Assembly: GCA_029865225.1 (NCBI GenBank)
Contig: JAOUHJ010000024.1
Span: 1 to 43,521, forward strand
Direction of reading: 5' to 3'
Length of the DNA: 43,521 nucleotides
Source: Nitrospira sp.
Lineage (GTDB): Bacteria; Nitrospirota; Nitrospiria; Nitrospirales; Nitrospiraceae
Shown: positions 1 to 6,822 of the stretch, piece by piece
How positions within the stretch are numbered: position 1 is the first letter of the stretch
How the letters are laid out: the number at the start of each line of letters is the position of its first letter
Position numbers and translations under genes: made by a program
Notes under the pieces: generated by a model
What the model was told of the DNA's origin: nothing
Seen by the model: the letters and a program-made list of their open reading frames with translations, nothing else
The model's database searches: none

Positions 1-104
1 ACGCCTTAAAGAATATTCGCGAGGCCATTGAGCTATATTTAGAACCGGTCGAAGACGACTTAGCACTCAGTCCTGATGCAGAGCAGATCGAACTCGCGGT
101 ATGA
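1..104 (+). CDS. hicB: HicB-family antitoxin, C-terminal end only (cut by window edge)
   Basis: The frame opening at base 3 reads ALKNIREAIELYLEPVEDDL and ends at TGA 102-104. It is nearly identical to the C-terminal half of the complete HicB antitoxin at 311-514, differing by Asp for Asn near the end. HicB antitoxins neutralise the HicA mRNA interferase and usually autorepress the operon. The 5' half lies outside the window. The stop overlaps the ATG of a hicA stub at 101 in the same GTATGA arrangement as the complete pair, so this is the tail of an upstream copy of the same module. Many synonymous differences between the copies show the duplication is not recent. Confidence 0.8.
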   Translation, partial: ALKNIREAIELYLEPVEDDLALSPDAEQIELAV

Positions 105-172
105 GCAAAGTTTCTAGCGTCTCCTATACGGAGGTGATTCACAATGGAGCGTATCGTCAATTTACACATTGA
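101..172 (+). pseudogene. Truncated hicA toxin stub (first module)
   Basis: ATG 101 begins MSKVSSVSYTEVIH, matching the first 14 residues of the complete HicA at 511 (MSKVPSLSYTEVIR). The homology then stops and the frame ends at TGA 170-172 after 23 codons. The RNA-binding core and the catalytic Gly-Ser-His region of HicA are missing, so the product cannot be an active toxin. The break falls exactly where the ribosome binding site of the next gene starts, suggesting that the two modules were joined here by recombination. Confidence 0.75.
130..139 (+). promoter_or_regulatory. Strong ribosome binding site inside the hicA stub
   Basis: GGAGGTGATT lies 4 nt before ATG 144 and is a near-perfect complement of the 16S rRNA 3' end. 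The intact hicA copy has GGAGGTCATT at the same codons, so one base change relative to that copy strengthens the site. It fixes the start of the mini-HicB gene at 144. Confidence 0.7.
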
Positions 173-314
173 AAAGCTTCCCAAAGGGATGTACCTCGCC
201 ACATCGGATGCGATACAAGGCCTCGTCGCGCAAGGACGATCGATTCAAGAAACAATCGACATCGCGCAGGATGTCGCCAAGAAGATCCTCAAAACCAAAG
301 AGGAACAGGTATGA
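144..314 (+). CDS. Mini-HicB / DUF1902-like antitoxin component
   Basis: This 56-residue protein starts MERIVNLHIEKLPKGMYLAT and continues with a SD..QGLVAQG segment and a helical tail. The layout (two strands, the YLATSD turn, then a helix) is that of DUF1902/HicB-like partial RNase-H-fold antitoxins. It is too short for a separate DNA-binding domain. The start is set by the strong ribosome binding site at 130-139. Its TGA (312-314) overlaps the ATG of hicB at 311, so it is probably translationally coupled to the hicBA pair. A second antitoxin-like subunit in front of hicB is unusual. It may bind HicA, HicB or neither; only the fold resemblance is visible. Confidence 0.65.
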   Translation: MERIVNLHIEKLPKGMYLATSDAIQGLVAQGRSIQETIDIAQDVAKKILKTKEEQV

Positions 315-514
315 AACTCCGCATTGTGCTCGAACCCAGTGAAGACGGCGGCTATACGGTCTTTGTTCCGACCCTTCCTGGCTGTATCAGCGAAGGAGAG
401 AATAAAGAAGAAGCCCTCAAGAATATTCGCGAAGCCATCGAGCTCTATCTAGAACCCGTTGAAGACGACCTGGCCCTGAGTCCGAATGCCGAGCAGATTG
501 AACTCGCGGTATGA
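311..514 (+). CDS. hicB: HicB-family antitoxin
   Basis: This 67-residue protein has the HicB core: MKLRIVLEPSEDGGYTVFVP, then the LPGC.SEG.N.EEAL.NI.EAI.LYLE signature. HicB sequesters the HicA mRNA interferase and may repress its own promoter. It lacks the longer C-terminal ribbon-helix-helix or HTH domain of large HicB proteins, so it is the short form. Its stop overlaps the hicA ATG by 4 nt (ATGA), giving tight translational coupling. The order antitoxin then toxin is typical of short-HicB operons. The product is presumably cytoplasmic. Confidence 0.85.
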   Translation: MKLRIVLEPSEDGGYTVFVPTLPGCISEGENKEEALKNIREAIELYLEPVEDDLALSPNAEQIELAV

Positions 515-738
515 GCAAAGTTCCCAGCCTCTCTTACACGGAGGTCATTCGGGCATTGCAGCGCGATAGCTGGGTCGTTGTTCGGCAAAGAGGTAGTCAT
601 CTCCGCCTCCAGAAACATCTTGCCACCGAAGTGCTGAAGGTCACTGTGCTGGCCCACCGGCCAATCAAGCGATCAACGTTGTCTCATATACTGAAACAAG
701 CGCGTTTGTCTGTCGACCAATTCAATGAGCTTTTGTAA
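511..738 (+). CDS. hicA: HicA-family mRNA interferase toxin
   Basis: This 75-residue protein has the small double-stranded-RNA-binding-like fold of HicA. It has YTEVIRALQRDSWVVVRQRG, the catalytic Gly-Ser-His followed by LRLQ, and a conserved VTVLAHRPIK..TL..ILKQA.L tail. HicA enzymes cut mRNA and tmRNA during stress when HicB is degraded. Length and motifs are normal, so this copy looks intact, unlike the stub at 101. It starts within the hicB stop. The gene is followed by a GCCGG/CCGGC inverted repeat (739-755) with no T run, so that repeat is not a convincing terminator. Confidence 0.87.
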   Translation: MSKVPSLSYTEVIRALQRDSWVVVRQRGSHLRLQKHLATEVLKVTVLAHRPIKRSTLSHILKQARLSVDQFNELL

Positions 739-804
739 GCCGGTGAGCCTCCGGCACCGCATCCGCTTCCCTGTGTTGGATCGCAGGATTTGACAGTCAT
801 TTTT

Positions 805-823
805 AAAGTAGCTGTCCCCTTTT
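805..823. repeat. Copy 1 of a short transposon-flank repeat
   Basis: AAAGTAGCTGTCCCCTTTT is nearly repeated at 4374-4393 as AAAGTAGAATGTCCCCTTTT. The second copy precedes the N-terminal remnant of a REP-associated transposase. Motifs of the type AAAAGGGGACA next to such transposases are common in environmental genomes. Here it abuts the point where the IS630 reading frame loses homology, so it probably marks an insertion or deletion junction. Confidence 0.5.
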
Positions 824-828
824 CTTCT

Positions 829-1206
829 CCGACTCACCCCGCTCCGCTGCGCCATGCCGCGCGTGCTCCAGTGGGTCGCATGGACGGGCGTCGTCTCCAG
901 GGTGTAGGTGACAATGCGTTCAATGGCCGCATCTGTCACGGTCCGCGGAGCACCAGGGCGCGGGTCATCCAGCAGCCCATCGAGGCGGTGAGTCACAAAG
1001 CGCTGCCGCCATTTACAGACCGTTGGCGGCGCCACCCGCACGACACGGGCGACAGCGGTATTCGGCTGCCCTTCAGCACAGGTCAAAATAATCTGCGCCC
1101 GCTGCGCCAACGCCTGAGCGGTCTTCGGGCGGCGTACCCACTGCTGCAACGTTTCTCGTTCGGGCATCGTCAAGGTCAGCGGGGTCATCGGTCGTCCAGT
1201 TCGCAT
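829..1206 (-). pseudogene. Truncated IS630-family transposase (N-terminal helix-turn-helix part)
   Basis: Reading on the minus strand from ATG 1206, about 125 residues resemble the N-terminus of IS630/Tc1-type transposases: MRTGRPMTPLTLTMPERETL, an AQRAQIIL.CAEG..NTAVAR helix-turn-helix region, KWRQRFV..RLDGLLDDPRPGAPRT, and TTP.HATHWSTRGMA. Homology ends near 829, and the following frame is unrelated. The DDE catalytic domain is absent; full transposases are about 340-360 residues. The element is therefore dead. It lies between hicA and the 3' end of the calpain-like gene. Confidence 0.75.
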
Positions 1207-1277
1207 GGTGTCCTCCTTTCGATACCTGAGAACACCAGCGGTGCACAACTTATTCCAAGGACTTCAGAGACAGGACA

Positions 1278-2243
1278 CTAGGGGGTCCCATAGTATATCG
1301 CCTCAAAGTTGCTCGAGAATTCCTTGAGCGGAATCTTTTCGGGCTTCCCCCACGGATTATAGAGCTCGATCGTAGAACCTTGGATACCCAATACGGCATA
1401 GCCGTGGTCAGATTCCACGCGGGTGGCATCAGTGCTATCAATCTTCGGAACATCATCTCTGGTAGCACCAATGGTCGGAACCTTGGATGCAGCCATTGCA
1501 GCAGCGCGAATCTTCTGTTCGGTCATGTTGCCGTCCCTGATCACGACCGGTTTCTTACCCACCAGAACTTCCCAGAACTCTTCCACGGTATGCTTCTGGT
1601 CATCAAGCTCTTGATAGCTCTTTAATTTCACCGCATAGGCCTTTTCGATGACGCATGGCCAAAGAACCTGATTCGGCGAATCCATGTAGACTAGATCCAT
1701 ATCCCCACCGGACTGCCCCGTCTCTTTAACATAGAACGCGTCACTCACCTCAATAAGTCCTTTGAGGTTCACGGCAAAGTAGCGACTTGAGAGAATCTCC
1801 TTATTCTGAGGGGAATAATCGGGATTATCGGCCTCTCTGGATAAAATTGTTGTCATGACGTCATGAGCGACTGTCGTCTTGATATTTGCACCCAGATACT
1901 CGGTAATCATGCCGTCTAATCGCTTTCGGCCGCTTGGCGTGTGGGCCAATGCCGAGAGAATTGCTGCGATCGGACAATTGGCAAGCTCCCCCTGCTGTAC
2001 ATCACCCCACGCTGGGACCCTCTTGGAGAGCTTCCACGAGACTGTGCGCAATCGCATGATCGTGCTACTCCCCTTCGACGGTGGTGGCATTGCCAGCGTC
2101 TTAATTGACTTCGTTGCTCCCTGCTGTTTGGTCAAGTCCTCTTGTCCAAAACGCAGCGGTCCGGGGAGTCGTCCTCCTAATATCTCCGGTGATAGCCCCA
2201 ACGGTCCGGGAAAGCGAGCGCCGCCTTTGTATTGAAGTGTCAT
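1278..2243 (-). CDS. Calpain-type (papain-fold) cysteine protease, candidate T6SS cargo
   Basis: From ATG 2243 (preceded by GGGAG 7 nt upstream; an in-frame start at 2270 has less support) this encodes 321 residues. Residues 78-101 read as a calpain catalytic block, with WGDVQQGELANCPIAAILSA giving oxyanion Gln84 and nucleophile Cys90. WPCVIEKAYA (195-204) matches the conserved calpain WP..EKAYA. Catalytic His280 lies in SDHGYAVLG and Asn296 in LYNPWG. Calpain-family (C2) enzymes are proteases. No calcium-binding or membrane domain is visible. The first 35 residues carry a repeated GPL motif (PGPLGLSPEILGG, LPGPLRFG) of unknown role. There is no signal peptide, so an extracellular target would need a specialised route such as the adjacent T6SS; that is inference. 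The gene ends 72 bp from the IS630 scar, and no immunity gene is obvious beside it. Confidence 0.72.
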   Translation of the reverse strand: MTLQYKGGARFPGPLGLSPEILGGRLPGPLRFGQEDLTKQQGATKSIKTLAMPPPSKGSSTIMRLRTVSWKLSKRVPAWGDVQQGELANCPIAAILSALAHTPSGRKRLDGMITEYLGANIKTTVAHDVMTTILSREADNPDYSPQNKEILSSRYFAVNLKGLIEVSDAFYVKETGQSGGDMDLVYMDSPNQVLWPCVIEKAYAVKLKSYQELDDQKHTVEEFWEVLVGKKPVVIRDGNMTEQKIRAAAMAASKVPTIGATRDDVPKIDSTDATRVESDHGYAVLGIQGSTIELYNPWGKPEKIPLKEFSSNFEAIYYGTP

Positions 2244-2378: not shown

Positions 2379-3437
2379 TCAAATATTGCTCAGGTAGATC
2401 TCGACTCGCCTGTTCTTTGCCCGCCCTTCGACTCTGGTATTCGGTGCCACAGGCTGGTTCTTACCGAAGCCTTGAGTTTTCACCATAGCAGGCGTGAGAT
2501 AGCCACGTCGGTAGAACCATTTTGCGACTTCTTCTGCGCGTTGTTGCGATAGCAGCAGATTGTGGCCGTCAGTTCCGGTGCTGTCCGTGTGACCATTGAT
2601 GTAGATGGATCGTCGGCGGGGGTTTGATTTGATCTTGCCCCACGCCTGTTCGAGCGGTTTGTCGGCGGCAGGTTTGAGATCGGCTTTATTCAGTTCGAAC
2701 AAGACGTCGCTGGTCAGCACCACGACAAACGAGTCATCCTTTGCAGTGATCCGGACGGGTTCCTCATACGGAACGGGCATGCGCTCCATATCGAGCAAGA
2801 GTTTAAGCGTCGCAAGTGTGGCGTCGTTGGCAAACCAGAAGTCACTGTAAATCATTCCCGCGTACGTACGGTCAGCGCCTGGTCGAGAAGTGGCCTTATA
2901 CTCCCCTTCTTTGCGAAGAATGTAGTGGATGTAGGGGAATAGCTCGTCATCTTCTTTGCAACCGCGTTTACTCCATTCCTCGACCATCGAGGCCTGCTGC
3001 TCCAGGTTATAGGAAGCCCACGGATCGCTCGCGGTGAAGTGGTAACCCGCCCCGAGATTTTGTGCATACACGCAGCGAAGCGCAATTTCCCAGGCCTTCG
3101 CATAGGGTCGCGAATACTGCCACACATGGGTCAACTCATGGATGAACACATCACGGGCGTTATCGGAGTAGCCGGGCACATAGCGACCAAGACTTACTCC
3201 CGGCACAGAGAGATCAGCGTTCGCCGCGTCGCCGAAATTGATGTAATATCGGACAGGCGAACTGAGGGCTCCGTTGAAAGGGATCATTGAGCGCGTCATA
3301 GTCCACACCGTGTCGTCTTTGCCCAGTCCGTCGGTGATGCCGATTTGCGGCCAGGGCGGCAACGCTGTGTGAAAGACTGTCTTGACGTATTCAATCTCGG
3401 TCGGCTTGAGGTGCCGAGTAAAGCTTGCGTTCCTCAT
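2379..3437 (-). CDS. Zincin-like metallopeptidase fused to an OmpA peptidoglycan-binding domain
   Basis: This 352-residue protein starts at ATG 3437 with GGAGGA about 9 nt upstream. Residues 97-107 contain VFIHELTHVWQ, a HExxH zinc site (His100, Glu101, His104). YNLEQQASMVEEW (143-155) supplies a likely third ligand, Glu146. The C-terminal 115 residues form an OmpA-like domain, with LFELNKADLKPAA, INGHTDSTGTD, LLLSQQRAEEVAKWF and GFGKNQPVAPN. OmpA domains bind the diaminopimelate of peptidoglycan. No signal peptide or membrane segment is present, so the protein is made in the cytoplasm although its C-terminal domain expects the cell wall. This suggests delivery by the nearby T6SS into prey periplasm, though a cell-wall anchor role for the secretion machine is an alternative. 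The gene lies 135 bp upstream of the calpain-like gene on the same strand, possibly in one transcript. Confidence 0.75.
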   Translation of the reverse strand: MRNASFTRHLKPTEIEYVKTVFHTALPPWPQIGITDGLGKDDTVWTMTRSMIPFNGALSSPVRYYINFGDAANADLSVPGVSLGRYVPGYSDNARDVFIHELTHVWQYSRPYAKAWEIALRCVYAQNLGAGYHFTASDPWASYNLEQQASMVEEWSKRGCKEDDELFPYIHYILRKEGEYKATSRPGADRTYAGMIYSDFWFANDATLATLKLLLDMERMPVPYEEPVRITAKDDSFVVVLTSDVLFELNKADLKPAADKPLEQAWGKIKSNPRRRSIYINGHTDSTGTDGHNLLLSQQRAEEVAKWFYRRGYLTPAMVKTQGFGKNQPVAPNTRVEGRAKNRRVEIYLSNI

Positions 3438-3638: not shown

Positions 3639-3932
3639 GTGGAATTCGAATGGGACCTTGCAAAAGACCTCCAGAACATCCAAAAGCACGGAGTCAGTTT
3701 CGCAGAGGCCGTCGAATCTTTTCTTGATCCACATGGGCTTCAACTGGCGGACAGGAAACATTCTAAGTCGGAAGCGCGGCTGTACTGGGTTGGCCGCATC
3801 GCAACGGGGCGCATCGTGACCACTCGGGTTACCAGACGCGGGAAGAGCATCCGCATCATTGGTGCCGTGAAGTGGAGAAAGTTTCGGAGGCTCTATCATG
3901 AAAGAACCAAGTCTTCGTCATCTCAAGATTGA
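3639..3932 (+). CDS. brnT: BrnT-family ribonuclease toxin
   Basis: The frame starts at GTG 3639 and encodes 97 residues with the BrnT pattern: VEFEWDLAKDLQNIQKHGVS, FAEAVE.FLD, D.KHS.SEARLYWVG, then RIVTTRVTRRGKSIRIIGA and a basic R..Y tail. BrnT is a RelE-like ribonuclease that blocks translation, paired with a BrnA antitoxin made from the next gene. The length is near the usual 90. Its TGA (3930-3932) overlaps a TTG start of the downstream gene by 2 nt. It is the first plus-strand gene after the two proteases and is divergent from them, with 201 bp between. Confidence 0.8.
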   Translation: MEFEWDLAKDLQNIQKHGVSFAEAVESFLDPHGLQLADRKHSKSEARLYWVGRIATGRIVTTRVTRRGKSIRIIGAVKWRKFRRLYHERTKSSSSQD

Positions 3933-4457: not shown

Positions 4458-4982
4458 TCAGTGGCTCCCCGACGGTTTCAAACGCCGATCGACGGATCGA
4501 ACGAGGCGCTCTAATCCTCGCGTCTCTTCTTTGGAAACCAAGAAGGCGTCGCCGTGCTCGATGACGAAACGTGCCACCCTCCCAAGGGCTGACACACATG
4601 CGTCGTTTAGGTGCGGCGAGGCGATGTCCGTCCAAAAACCTGGAGATGCCAGAGCGTATATCGTGTGAGAGAGCGTCTTAATCTCGATAGGAAAACCGAC
4701 TTCTTCCTGGATTTGGAATCCTCGAAGGATGGAAACGAGGTAGGGTCCCAGATAAGCCGCCGCCGCATGGGCGGGCAACTCGAGAAGTGGAGTTGCTACC
4801 CTGAAGCCGGCGGAATCGATATCGACATCGACCGGTCGGACACCGACAAAGGCAACCACAGCGTCCTCGCCATATTCCCAGTTCATGATCGCCATGTCGG
4901 CGGGAGGTGGTGCATCTAGCCCGGCCCAAGCTGTCTTGACCTCGGCCATCAGATCTTGCGGGGTAGGTGTTGCCACGGTCAA
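4458..4982 (-). CDS. Unknown protein coupled to the DUF4150 effector; candidate immunity or chaperone
   Basis: The frame starts at TTG 4982 (or GTG 4976) and encodes 174 residues that I do not recognise. It begins MTVATPTPQDLMAEVKTAWA and is soluble, helical and acidic in the middle, with a hydrophobic LPAHAAAAYLGPYLVSILRG segment and a basic Arg-rich end. No signal peptide is seen. The start lies inside the stop of the DUF4150 gene (TTGA overlap), so the two are translationally coupled. A small gene directly after a spike-tip effector is the usual place for a cognate immunity protein, but loading chaperones occupy the same place. The gene is the last of the T6SS run. Confidence 0.55.
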   Translation of the reverse strand: MTVATPTPQDLMAEVKTAWAGLDAPPPADMAIMNWEYGEDAVVAFVGVRPVDVDIDSAGFRVATPLLELPAHAAAAYLGPYLVSILRGFQIQEEVGFPIEIKTLSHTIYALASPGFWTDIASPHLNDACVSALGRVARFVIEHGDAFLVSKEETRGLERLVRSVDRRLKPSGSH

Positions 4983-5773
4983 TATCGCCCCATCTTCTTT
5001 ATCCGATGCACCATCGCGTAATATTCCCCCCAGTGTGCTGTTCGCCTACCCTTTGCCGTCGGATGTTTGGGATCGGGCCATGGGATATCGTCGCAACCCA
5101 TCTCGATGTACTTTTTTCGTTCCTCACAGAGATCGTGTAACTTTTCAATCTTCTCATTATTGATCTGATGAAAGGTACTCCGCTCGGAAAGGGTTAGAAG
5201 CACCGGCTTGATTAGCATTTTTGATTTGATCTCCTCCTCCACCTTCTTTAGCAAGGCGTCATACTCAGCTTTTCGATGATTTGCTTCCTCGTCCTGAATC
5301 GCCTTGTACTTGTCGTGTTGCTCGATGCACTCCTTCCACTTTTTTGGCGAGACGCCAAGGGGTGGATTGTCTGGATCGAGGTTGCCGCCTAGATCGACCG
5401 TGTTCTGGTTGTTATGGAATTTCTTGTCCGTGTGGCGGCAAGCATTCTTGCCGTCCATTTTTACGTCGAAGGAATAGGTAATCCAGTCTGTCGCTTTCAT
5501 GTTAACGCTGGATTTCACGCCGCCCGCGGTTCCCGCCTCATCGCCGTTCGAGCGTCCGTACTGCGACTCTTTCACGGCAATCATCTTGCCGTGGGCTTTG
5601 ACCGAAGTTGTTCCGTTCTTTAGTGAGGATTGATCTGCAATGTTAGGGTACGGAATCGGCACCGGGCCACCTGGCGATGGCGTTTTGCAAACATCAGGAA
5701 TCGTCGCGGTTGAGATGCCGATAGTACCCTTGTAAGTGAGGCCCAGGCCGTTGACAAAAACATCCGAAGGCAT
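4979..5773 (-). CDS. DUF4150 (PAAR-like) T6SS tip protein with C-terminal effector-like extension
   Basis: The preferred start is ATG 5773, overlapping the previous stop as TGATG; an in-frame ATG at 5788 is an alternative. The product is 264 residues. The first 125 match DUF4150: VFVNG, IPDVCKTPSPGGPVPIPYPN, KESQYGRSNGDEAGTAGGV, SFDVKMDGKNACRHTD. DUF4150 folds like PAAR and caps the VgrG spike. The remaining ~140 residues are a charged helical region ending in CEERKKYIEMGCDDIPWPDP, then RRTAHWGEYYAMVHRIKK. I cannot assign a toxin family; the conserved-looking His, Trp, Glu and Tyr near the end are candidates for an active site. The gene follows the DUF2169 adaptor and the ketosynthase-like gene, the usual loading module for such tips. 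Confidence 0.8.
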   Translation of the reverse strand: MPSDVFVNGLGLTYKGTIGISTATIPDVCKTPSPGGPVPIPYPNIADQSSLKNGTTSVKAHGKMIAVKESQYGRSNGDEAGTAGGVKSSVNMKATDWITYSFDVKMDGKNACRHTDKKFHNNQNTVDLGGNLDPDNPPLGVSPKKWKECIEQHDKYKAIQDEEANHRKAEYDALLKKVEEEIKSKMLIKPVLLTLSERSTFHQINNEKIEKLHDLCEERKKYIEMGCDDIPWPDPKHPTAKGRRTAHWGEYYAMVHRIKKMGRY

Positions 5774-6822
5774 CAGGCCGTTCCCCATCGGCTGAGGATA
5801 GCAGCTGCGCGCAATCCCCCTTCCGAACTCGCCCAGATTAGGCTCAGCGGTCCCGGAGAGTAGCCCCGCGCCTCAGCTTCGATAACAAGGCCAGCATACA
5901 ATGGTCCCGCTGCTGCACCCACATCGCCCCAACAATCCGCCGGTGCTTCAAATGCAGCAGCGTTCTTGAATAGTCCGGACGCCTTCAGGACGGCAAAGCC
6001 ATATTCATTTCCGCGATACCTCTCGCCGTTCATGTCGCAGATGATGCGATCGATCGTTGCAGTATTGCGAACCGCCTCTGCAGCCGTACGTAAAGCGGCA
6101 GAGAGCCCCTCACCAAGGCAGATATCCTCGGTCTTAATCAAGTTTTTCTCAATCCCGGATCCTATTGACACTAGGGTAACGAGCGGTGCTAAACCCAGAC
6201 GGCGCGCCGTTTCCATCCGAGCGATCAGTACGAAGCCCGCTGCTTCACCAGGGCAGAAACCATAGATGTTTCCCTCGGAATGGAGCTGCTCGATATCATC
6301 CAGCCATTCCAACGTGTCGCGACAGATATAGCTATCGGTTCCCCCTGCAAGTACAAGTTCAGCGTCGCCCTCGACGATCATCCGACGACCTGCCTCCATC
6401 GCTAAGATGCCCCCGGCATGACCTTCCATCGAGTGCGATCGCTCTCCTACACGGATCTTGTCGCTCAATCTGTCACACAATGCGTCGGCTAGCCGCGCGC
6501 CGGTGTGGCGATCCTGGCCCGGCCGCTCTTCTCCTAGACTGATTACGGCCGCGACTTTCGGCACGGTGCTGAGTCCATCGAGAGGCGCAAGAGCTTCACA
6601 GGCCGCTGAAAGGGCAAGTTCGAATAACCGTTCGGGCCCAGTCAGTGCCGGGCCCAGGCTGGCATCTCGCGCCACTTTCATCGGCTCACCGAACCGATCA
6701 ATCATAAACGGATGGTCGGTAATAGATGCAATGCCCGCGCGTACAGCTGCAGCGCTGGACCGACGGTCGAAACCGACGGAGGTTCTGGCGCCGCAACCAA
6801 CGATGACCAGCTGAGTACTCAT
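5773..6822 (-). CDS. Thiolase-fold, ketosynthase-like protein lacking the catalytic triad (T6SS accessory)
   Basis: This 349-residue protein has the outline of a beta-ketoacyl synthase: LVIVGCGARTSVG at the N-terminus, EGHAGGILAMEAGRRMIVEG and DAELVLAGGTDSYI where the nucleophile elbow should be, GFCPGEAAGFVLIA, and GDVGAAAGPLYAGL near the end. In active enzymes these blocks carry Cys, His and His. Here the Cys position aligns with Gly134, the last GH motif reads GD, and the middle His motif is replaced around DMNGERYRGNE. It is therefore probably not a condensing enzyme. Such proteins recur between DUF2169 and DUF4150 genes in T6SS loci. A structural, chaperone or ligand-binding role in loading the tip is inferred. 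It starts directly after the DUF2169 stop. Confidence 0.75.
   Translation of the reverse strand: MSTQLVIVGCGARTSVGFDRRSSAAAVRAGIASITDHPFMIDRFGEPMKVARDASLGPALTGPERLFELALSAACEALAPLDGLSTVPKVAAVISLGEERPGQDRHTGARLADALCDRLSDKIRVGERSHSMEGHAGGILAMEAGRRMIVEGDAELVLAGGTDSYICRDTLEWLDDIEQLHSEGNIYGFCPGEAAGFVLIARMETARRLGLAPLVTLVSIGSGIEKNLIKTEDICLGEGLSAALRTAAEAVRNTATIDRIICDMNGERYRGNEYGFAVLKASGLFKNAAAFEAPADCWGDVGAAAGPLYAGLVIEAEARGYSPGPLSLIWASSEGGLRAAAILSRWGTA

What the first reader, a model, noticed from the sequence alone, without database searches (positions are those of the whole stretch)
1278..2243. Calpain-type protease without a signal peptide near the T6SS
All key calpain residues (Gln84, Cys90, His280, Asn296) and the WP..EKAYA motif are in place, while the protein lacks the calcium-sensing and membrane parts of classic calpains. 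A GPL-rich N-terminal repeat could be a loading signal. It could be a T6SS effector acting in the cytoplasm of prey, including eukaryotic predators.
Basis: partly seen in the sequence, partly recalled or inferred. Interest (0 to 1): 0.62.

Follow-up and report, generated by a model that had tools for sequence, protein, structure and literature searches.

The report
Calpain protease beside bacterial injection machine
A bacterium carries, at the end of the genes for its type VI injection machine, a small protease of the calpain family with a recurring N-terminal tag, and it is probably cargo injected into rival or predator cells, though neither delivery nor its target has been shown.

Summary
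Window 1278-2243 (-) encodes a 321-aa calpain-family protease with Gln84, Cys90, His280 and Asn296 in place (PF00648, 42.6 bits). Its predicted fold (pLDDT 80.9) matches calpain cores at Z 21.6. It has one domain and no EF-hand module.

Calpains are otherwise absent from the sampled phylum (1 of 395 genomes), so the gene looks acquired. With four proteins from two distant genomes it forms one clade (100/99) whose N-termini share a PGPLG-type segment: doubled in three, single or degenerate in two. The segment is predicted disordered and was found on no other convincing gene. All three genomes have a T6SS sheath gene; two genomes whose calpains lack the segment do not. One relative lies between ClpV and VgrG of another T6SS cluster.

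Best reading: T6SS cargo that cleaves proteins in the target's cytoplasm. Delivery, substrate, toxicity and prey kingdom are untested. No immunity gene was found, but an IS remnant abuts the gene's 3' end. Two of the five clade members are not near T6SS genes. I found no paper describing a T6SS calpain: a new variant of a known kind.

The parts
1278..2243 (-). calpain-family (C2) cysteine protease, 321 aa
   Evidence: Pfam PF00648 42.6 bits; fold match to calpain cores Z 21.6
2118..2243 (-). N-terminal segment (residues 1-42), predicted disordered, holding the double PGPL repeat (residues 9-36, nt 2136-2219); candidate loading tag
   Evidence: pLDDT about 40 in residues 1-42; recurs in clade relatives
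1281..2114 (-). catalytic core, residues 44-321: Cys90 at nt 1974-1976, His280 at 1404-1406, Asn296 at 1356-1358
   Evidence: residue check, structural range 44-321
2379..3437 (-). HExxH metallopeptidase-like domain plus C-terminal OmpA domain; second candidate effector
   Evidence: OmpA PF00691 68.8 bits; weak sequence match to the VgrG2b effector domain, E 0.044, over HELTH and YNLEQQ
4458..4982 (-). 174-aa protein of no known family, possibly an immunity protein or adaptor for the DUF4150 protein (inference)
   Evidence: overlaps the end of the DUF4150 gene; no Pfam or NCBIfam match
4979..5788 (-). DUF4150 (Tox-PAAR-like) spike tip with C-terminal extension
   Evidence: PF13665 129.7 bits
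5773..6822 (-). ketoacyl-synthase-like accessory protein
   Evidence: PF00109 32.2 bits
6823..7878 (-). DUF2169 protein (adaptor type, by recall)
   Evidence: PF09937 284.3 bits
8006..8557 (-). DUF6484 protein
   Evidence: PF20093 48.2 bits
8554..10812 (-). VgrG
   Evidence: PF05954, PF22178
10847..13969 (-). ClpV/TssH
   Evidence: PF07724, PF17871, PF10431
13582..30461 (-). T6SS core: TssG, TssF, TssE-like gp25, Hcp, TssC, TssB, TssA, ImpE, TagF, TssM, TssL, TssK, TssJ, FHA protein
   Evidence: Pfam
673..1248 (-). transposase HTH fragment (IS630-like by recall) abutting the 3' end of the calpain gene
   Evidence: PF13551, PF13565

Best explanation
The gene encodes a minimal calpain protease carried as cargo by the type VI secretion system of this window. 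The disordered N-terminal PGPLG segment acts as a docking tag that couples the protease to the spike/adaptors or the Hcp tube. After injection the calpain core, which lacks EF-hand regulation and has a shortened second calcium loop, is active in the target cytoplasm and cleaves one or more proteins by Cys90/His280/Asn296 catalysis. Shown here by computation: calpain family and fold, catalytic residues, single-domain architecture, T6SS neighbourhood, and a clade sharing the N-terminal tag in T6SS-bearing genomes. Inferred: secretion, tag function, cytoplasmic activity, toxicity. The target kingdom is open.
For: Catalytic residues and fold. Same-strand position at the end of a complete T6SS cluster, after a VgrG-DUF6484-DUF2169-KS-DUF4150 cassette. 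In three congeners the slot behind that cassette holds other, varied genes, as expected of an effector slot. Neighbour 2379-3437 weakly resembles the VgrG2b effector domain. A relative lies between ClpV and VgrG in another genome. The GPL clade is one group, 100/99, and its 3 genomes all have the sheath gene, against 0 of 2 genomes with calpains lacking the tag. Calpain absent from the other 394 of 395 phylum genomes. The GPL profile finds no other convincing gene in 5 genomes or in a 220-genome order sample.
Against: Only five clade members are known here, in three genomes, two of them draft MAGs. Both copies in the Rhodocyclaceae MAG (L021, L022) have no T6SS gene in the 20 kb and 14 kb examined. 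No dedicated immunity gene was seen at any of the five loci, which an antibacterial effector would need; in the window an IS remnant lies where one might have been, and L022 ends 298 bases beyond the gene. The VgrG2b match of the neighbour is weak (E 0.044). Position 296 is D or E in three of the four closest relatives, so activity may vary. No secretion or toxicity data.
Confidence: 0.6

Rival explanations
1. The calpain stays in the producing cell and processes T6SS parts or cargo, such as the DUF4150 protein or VgrG, before firing.
For: Gene lies in T6SS clusters; no immunity gene found, as expected if it is harmless to its maker; calpains typically make limited cuts (general knowledge).
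Against: Congeners with the same VgrG-DUF2169-KS-DUF4150 cassette were found without any calpain, so those parts do not need it; the gene is rare and patchy.
Confidence: 0.13
2. The gene is an unrelated acquired protease that happens to lie at the end of the cluster, next to an IS remnant.
For: IS remnant directly downstream; slightly lower G+C (0.522 against 0.557 for the window); two of five clade members are away from T6SS genes.
Against: An independent relative sits between ClpV and VgrG; the second copy in that genome (L024) has downstream a 122-aa protein related (30%, 2e-17) to one encoded in the first, T6SS locus; all three genomes have T6SS.
Confidence: 0.15
3. A narrower form of the best explanation: it is an antibacterial T6SS effector of the same working type as Cpe1, whose immunity gene was lost, displaced by the IS, or lies elsewhere.
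For: Papain-like proteases are established T6SS/CDI antibacterial toxins (PMC12136450, section 6 read); a papain-like protease toxin/immunity pair and a CDI toxin are among the best non-calpain fold matches (9l5u Z 10.2, 8ssm Z 9.9).
Against: No candidate immunity gene at L021 or L023, where both flanks are complete.
Confidence: 0.3

Closest known systems
Bacterial calpains of peptidase family C2 (Rawlings 2015, PMC4631099)
   Same: Catalytic core and residues; often single-domain; no calcium-regulatory EF-hand domain; rare and patchy
   Different: That paper notes secreted, membrane and WXG100 (T7SS) forms; no T6SS association appears in the passages and section read, and the string T6SS occurs 0 times. 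The GPL N-terminus and T6SS context are additional.
Animal calpain protease cores (CAPN1, 3, 9)
   Same: Fold Z about 21, Cys/His/Asn triad and Gln
   Different: No PEF domain; the loop after NPWG, where the second calcium site of animal calpains lies (recalled), is only a few residues; about 19% identity in the structural alignment
Cpe1/EvpQ/TsaP papain-like T6SS and CDI toxins (PMC12136450)
   Same: Cysteine protease with a Cys-His-Asn/Asp triad in a T6SS setting
   Different: Related to ABC-transporter peptidases, shorter domain, usually followed by an immunity gene; fold match only about Z 10
Tce1/Tce2 Hcp3-loaded T6SS cysteine proteases (PMC13323088, passages read)
   Same: Tce1 is a cargo of about 300 aa with a flexible N-terminal part and a C-terminal cysteine protease
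   Different: Toxin-type cysteine protease fold by that paper, not calpain
Calpain-like proteins of the phylum of G397 (Myxococcota by recall and title; 57 of 195 genomes)
   Same: Related catalytic domain, 21-28% identical in alignment A5
   Different: Open frames of about 350-750 aa with other N-terminal parts; no double PGPL segment in 29 of 29 examined

Membership tests
Calpain (C2) peptidase family, catalytic domain | Gln, Cys, His, Asn active-site residues in calpain order | tested here: met
   Q84, C90, H280, N296
Calpain (C2) peptidase family, catalytic domain | Profile score above the curated cut-off | tested here: met
   PF00648 42.6 bits, cut-off 23.8
Calpain (C2) peptidase family, catalytic domain | Two-part PC1/PC2 protease core fold | tested here: met
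   AF2 model pLDDT 80.9; Z 21.6 over 230 residues to 6bjd_A; Foldseek E 3e-10
Classical calcium-regulated calpain | Penta-EF-hand and CBSW domains after the core | tested here: not met
   The protein ends at the core; one Pfam domain only
Classical calcium-regulated calpain | Calcium sites in the core | tested here: inconclusive
   Loop after NPWG is shortened, while D81, matching a first-site ligand by recall, is kept; calcium dependence not assayed
T6SS cargo effector | Encoded in or beside a T6SS cluster in independent genomes | tested here: met
   Window and L023 only; 2 of 5 clade members
T6SS cargo effector | T6SS-dependent secretion or delivery | not testable with these tools
   needs an experiment
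T6SS cargo effector | Known N-terminal marker or carrier domain (PAAR, VgrG, Rhs, MIX, FIX, RIX) | tested here: inconclusive
   No Pfam or NCBIfam domain in the N-terminus; MIX, FIX and RIX profiles were not run individually
Cpe1-type antibacterial protease | Adjacent cognate immunity gene | tested here: inconclusive
   None seen at five loci, but the window 3' side is an IS remnant and L022 is near a contig end
Cpe1-type antibacterial protease | Closest relation to ABC-transporter peptidase (C39-like) domains | tested here: not met
   Calpain cores Z 21.6 against 10.2 for 9l5u_B and 10.0 for PCAT1; profile A5 hits calpains at 6e-32

The most novel reading that the evidence does not exclude
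A T6SS-dedicated calpain clade, defined by a disordered PGPLG-repeat N-terminus that is a new type of T6SS loading signal, is shared by horizontal transfer among distant environmental bacteria and is aimed at eukaryotic grazers, so that bacteria inject a member of the eukaryotes' own regulatory protease family; the absence of immunity genes follows from the prey being eukaryotic.
Probability: 0.18. Interest if true: 0.8.

Novelty: new variant of a known kind. Interest (0 to 1): 0.52.

Why it matters
To my knowledge bacterial calpains have no established function. A clade tied to T6SS would give some of them one, add a protease class to the T6SS arsenal, and offer a short, testable candidate loading tag. 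It would also bear on the idea that calpains moved between bacteria and eukaryotes through cell-to-cell conflict.

Tried and rejected
Close-relative search of genome contigs with the window protein gave no relative; the same protein found nothing in plasmids or phages, the L024 and L005 proteins found nothing in plasmids, and alignment A1 found nothing in viral contigs. Of 10 loci from the degenerate motif scan, 4 proved calpain-like (L003, L005, L007, L010) and 6 looked like chance matches. L010 (Nodosilinea) appears frameshifted; it was read in three frames only and was not used in the tree or alignments.

Rejected: truncation of the calpain by the IS. The relatives end within a few residues of the same point. 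Rejected: a contig foreign to the genus. ClpV and VgrG of two congeners are 63-85% identical to those of the window. Tested and not found: a defence-system role (PADLOC), a phage family (PHROGs), a dedicated NCBIfam model. Not found: the GPL segment on other convincing genes; of the weak extra matches, the three that I could see were short unrelated-looking frames (four loci looked at; L074 printed none).

Limits: the tree holds 34 rows: the five GPL proteins and 29 others, one for each locus L082-L110 that handed out (57 genomes matched; the other matches were left out); L007, L025 and L010 were not in it. Counts at position 296 use these 34 rows. The T6SS sheath was checked in 5 genomes only and not in the other genomes. 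The first structure model (7 sequences, pLDDT 58.2) was replaced by the second (29 sequences).

Full report
WHAT IS THERE. The ORF at 1278-2243 (-) encodes 321 aa from an ATG with an upstream AAAGGGAG. Pfam gives PF00648 Peptidase_C2, 42.6 bits against a cut-off of 23.8, and no other domain. There is no hydrophobic N-terminal stretch. With a 29-row alignment AlphaFold2 gave mean pLDDT 80.9, with residues 1-42 mostly below 50 and most of the core above 90. Foldseek's top 39 PDB matches are calpains by their titles (best E 3e-10); VIA-align gives Z 21.6, rmsd 2.6, 230 residues with calpain-3, and 24 calpain rows before the next kinds, a papain-like toxin/immunity pair (Z 10.2), an ABC-transporter peptidase (10.0) and a CDI toxin (9.9). 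A profile of the 29 rows finds calpain structures at 6e-32; a profile of the five closest proteins alone reaches them only at 8e-5; the window protein alone reaches none.

SURROUNDINGS. The window is one whole contig. On the same strand lie FHA, TssJ, TssK, TssL, TssM, TagF, ImpE, TssA, TssB, TssC, Hcp, a gp25 (TssE-like) protein, TssF, TssG, ClpV, VgrG, DUF6484, DUF2169, a ketoacyl-synthase-like protein, a DUF4150 (Tox-PAAR-like) protein, a 174-aa protein, an HExxH/OmpA protein and the calpain. A BrnT toxin gene lies on the other strand in between, and a transposase HTH fragment abuts the calpain's 3' end. The HExxH/OmpA protein's first 230 residues match one PDB sequence, the VgrG2b effector domain, at E 0.044, over the HExxH helix and the YN[LI]EQQ stretch. 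VgrG2b's C-terminal domain is a T6SS-delivered zinc metallopeptidase toxic in the periplasm (PMC6899460, passages read). The match is weak and I use it only as a lead.

DISTRIBUTION. The window protein finds only itself in 395 genomes of the phylum, and PF00648 likewise 1 of 395. DUF4150 relatives occur in 7 of 77 genomes of the genus, the own genome included; in three of them (L059, L060, L061) the VgrG, DUF6484, DUF2169, KS and DUF4150 genes are present and what follows them differs from the window. So the calpain occupies a variable slot. A motif scan of genome contigs gave 10 loci, of which 4 are calpain-like. Whole-genome searches of those four genomes found a second copy in the Rhodocyclaceae MAG (G395), the Deltaproteobacteria MAG (G396) and the Myxococcales MAG (G397) (for G398 the two matches are pieces of one locus). 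In the order of G395 1 of 300 genomes has a relative (alignment A1), in the phylum of G396 1 of 297 (A3), in the phylum of G397 57 of 195 (A3), there with matches over the catalytic part only (profile positions from about 38 on in the rows listed).

A CLADE WITH A TAG. The window protein is 41% identical over 308 positions to the G395 copy and 31% over 327 to the G396 T6SS copy, and 45% in the alignment to the second G396 copy. The N-termini of window, L024 and L003 hold two PGP[LT]-type repeats 15-16 residues apart; L005 has one, L022 a degenerate form. In 29 of the more distant relatives no double repeat is seen; two have a single PGPL. The five form one group with 100/99 support in a tree of 34 rows (several branches are long, and the tool warns about this). 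The repeat profile found the five calpains and no other convincing gene in 5 genomes, and in 220 genomes of G395's order only G395's calpains plus two weak short frames.

LINK TO T6SS. The sheath gene PF05943 is present in G000, G395 and G396, the genomes with tagged calpains, and absent in G397 and G398, whose calpains lack the tag (3 of 3 against 0 of 2). In G396 one copy lies between ClpV and VgrG, followed by a DUF4123 gene. The second copy lies near a TGL-domain (transglutaminase-type) gene, and between them is a 122-aa protein 30% identical (2e-17) to one encoded in the first locus. Against this, both G395 copies lack T6SS genes within the 20 kb and 14 kb fetched. So 2 of 5 members are inside or at the end of a T6SS cluster; leaving out the window, which was chosen for it, 1 of 4. 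I take this as moderate evidence.

IMMUNITY. At none of the five loci is there a convincing dedicated immunity gene. For L021 and L023 both flanks are complete (in L021 an upstream same-strand gene encodes a DUF4405-like membrane protein just below that family's cut-off, which I take as unrelated); for the window an IS remnant adjoins the stop codon; L022 is 298 bases from the contig end; L024's downstream gene has a relative that does not adjoin the calpain of the first locus. This fits anti-eukaryotic use, or no toxicity to the maker, but proves neither.

MECHANISM. Most likely the disordered N-terminus docks the protease to Hcp or the spike adaptors, and the calpain core acts in the target cytoplasm. 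EF-hand regulation is absent and the loop after NPWG is shortened, so calcium control of the animal type is unlikely at that site, though D81 is kept; the roles of these positions are recalled, not looked up. A flexible N-terminus expected outside the Hcp ring has a precedent in Tce1 (PMC13323088, passages read).

NOVELTY. Searches for calpain with type VI secretion and effector, bacterial calpain with type VI secretion, type VI secretion with cysteine protease, immunity protein and calpain-like, calpain evolution in bacteria and T6SS with calpain or peptidase C2 listed no paper on a T6SS calpain; titles and beginnings of abstracts were seen, and only six of the listed papers were opened at passages or sections (PMC12136450, PMC4631099, PMC3482391, PMC4821854, PMC9380684, PMC13323088). 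Bacterial calpains themselves are known and rare, with a T7SS suggestion for WXG100 forms (PMC4631099). Hence a new variant of a known kind.

Noticed in passing
window 2379-3437 (-): HExxH metallopeptidase-like domain fused to an OmpA domain, weakly similar to the VgrG2b effector domain (E 0.044); a second candidate effector, possibly acting in the periplasm. In a search of 77 genus genomes the matches listed outside the own gene cover the OmpA part.
   Followed up: partly
window 4458-5788 (-): DUF4150 protein with an unassigned C-terminal extension and an overlapping 174-aa gene of no known family: a possible effector/immunity pair.
   Followed up: no
window 3639-3932 (+): BrnT-type toxin-antitoxin toxin gene on the opposite strand inside the effector end of the T6SS cluster.
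   Followed up: no
window 3-550: Two 138-nt direct repeats (84% identical, 410 nt apart) with small HicA/HicB-like frames (named by recall) at the contig start.
   Followed up: no
L003 435-1331 and L024 5615-6739: In the Deltaproteobacteria MAG, an HExxH protein gene downstream of a PAAR-like stretch (PAAR seen by eye), and a TGL-domain gene near the second calpain copy; both could be further T6SS cargo.
   Followed up: no
L005 1764-2672, L024 7551-8471, L022 299-1243 (-): Position 296 of the triad is Asp, Glu and Asp in three close relatives, and Trp298 is lost, while Gln, Cys and His stay.
   Followed up: partly
genomes, loci L082-L110: 57 of 195 genomes of one phylum carry calpain-like frames, some with up to nine matches; an unexplained expansion.
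   Followed up: no
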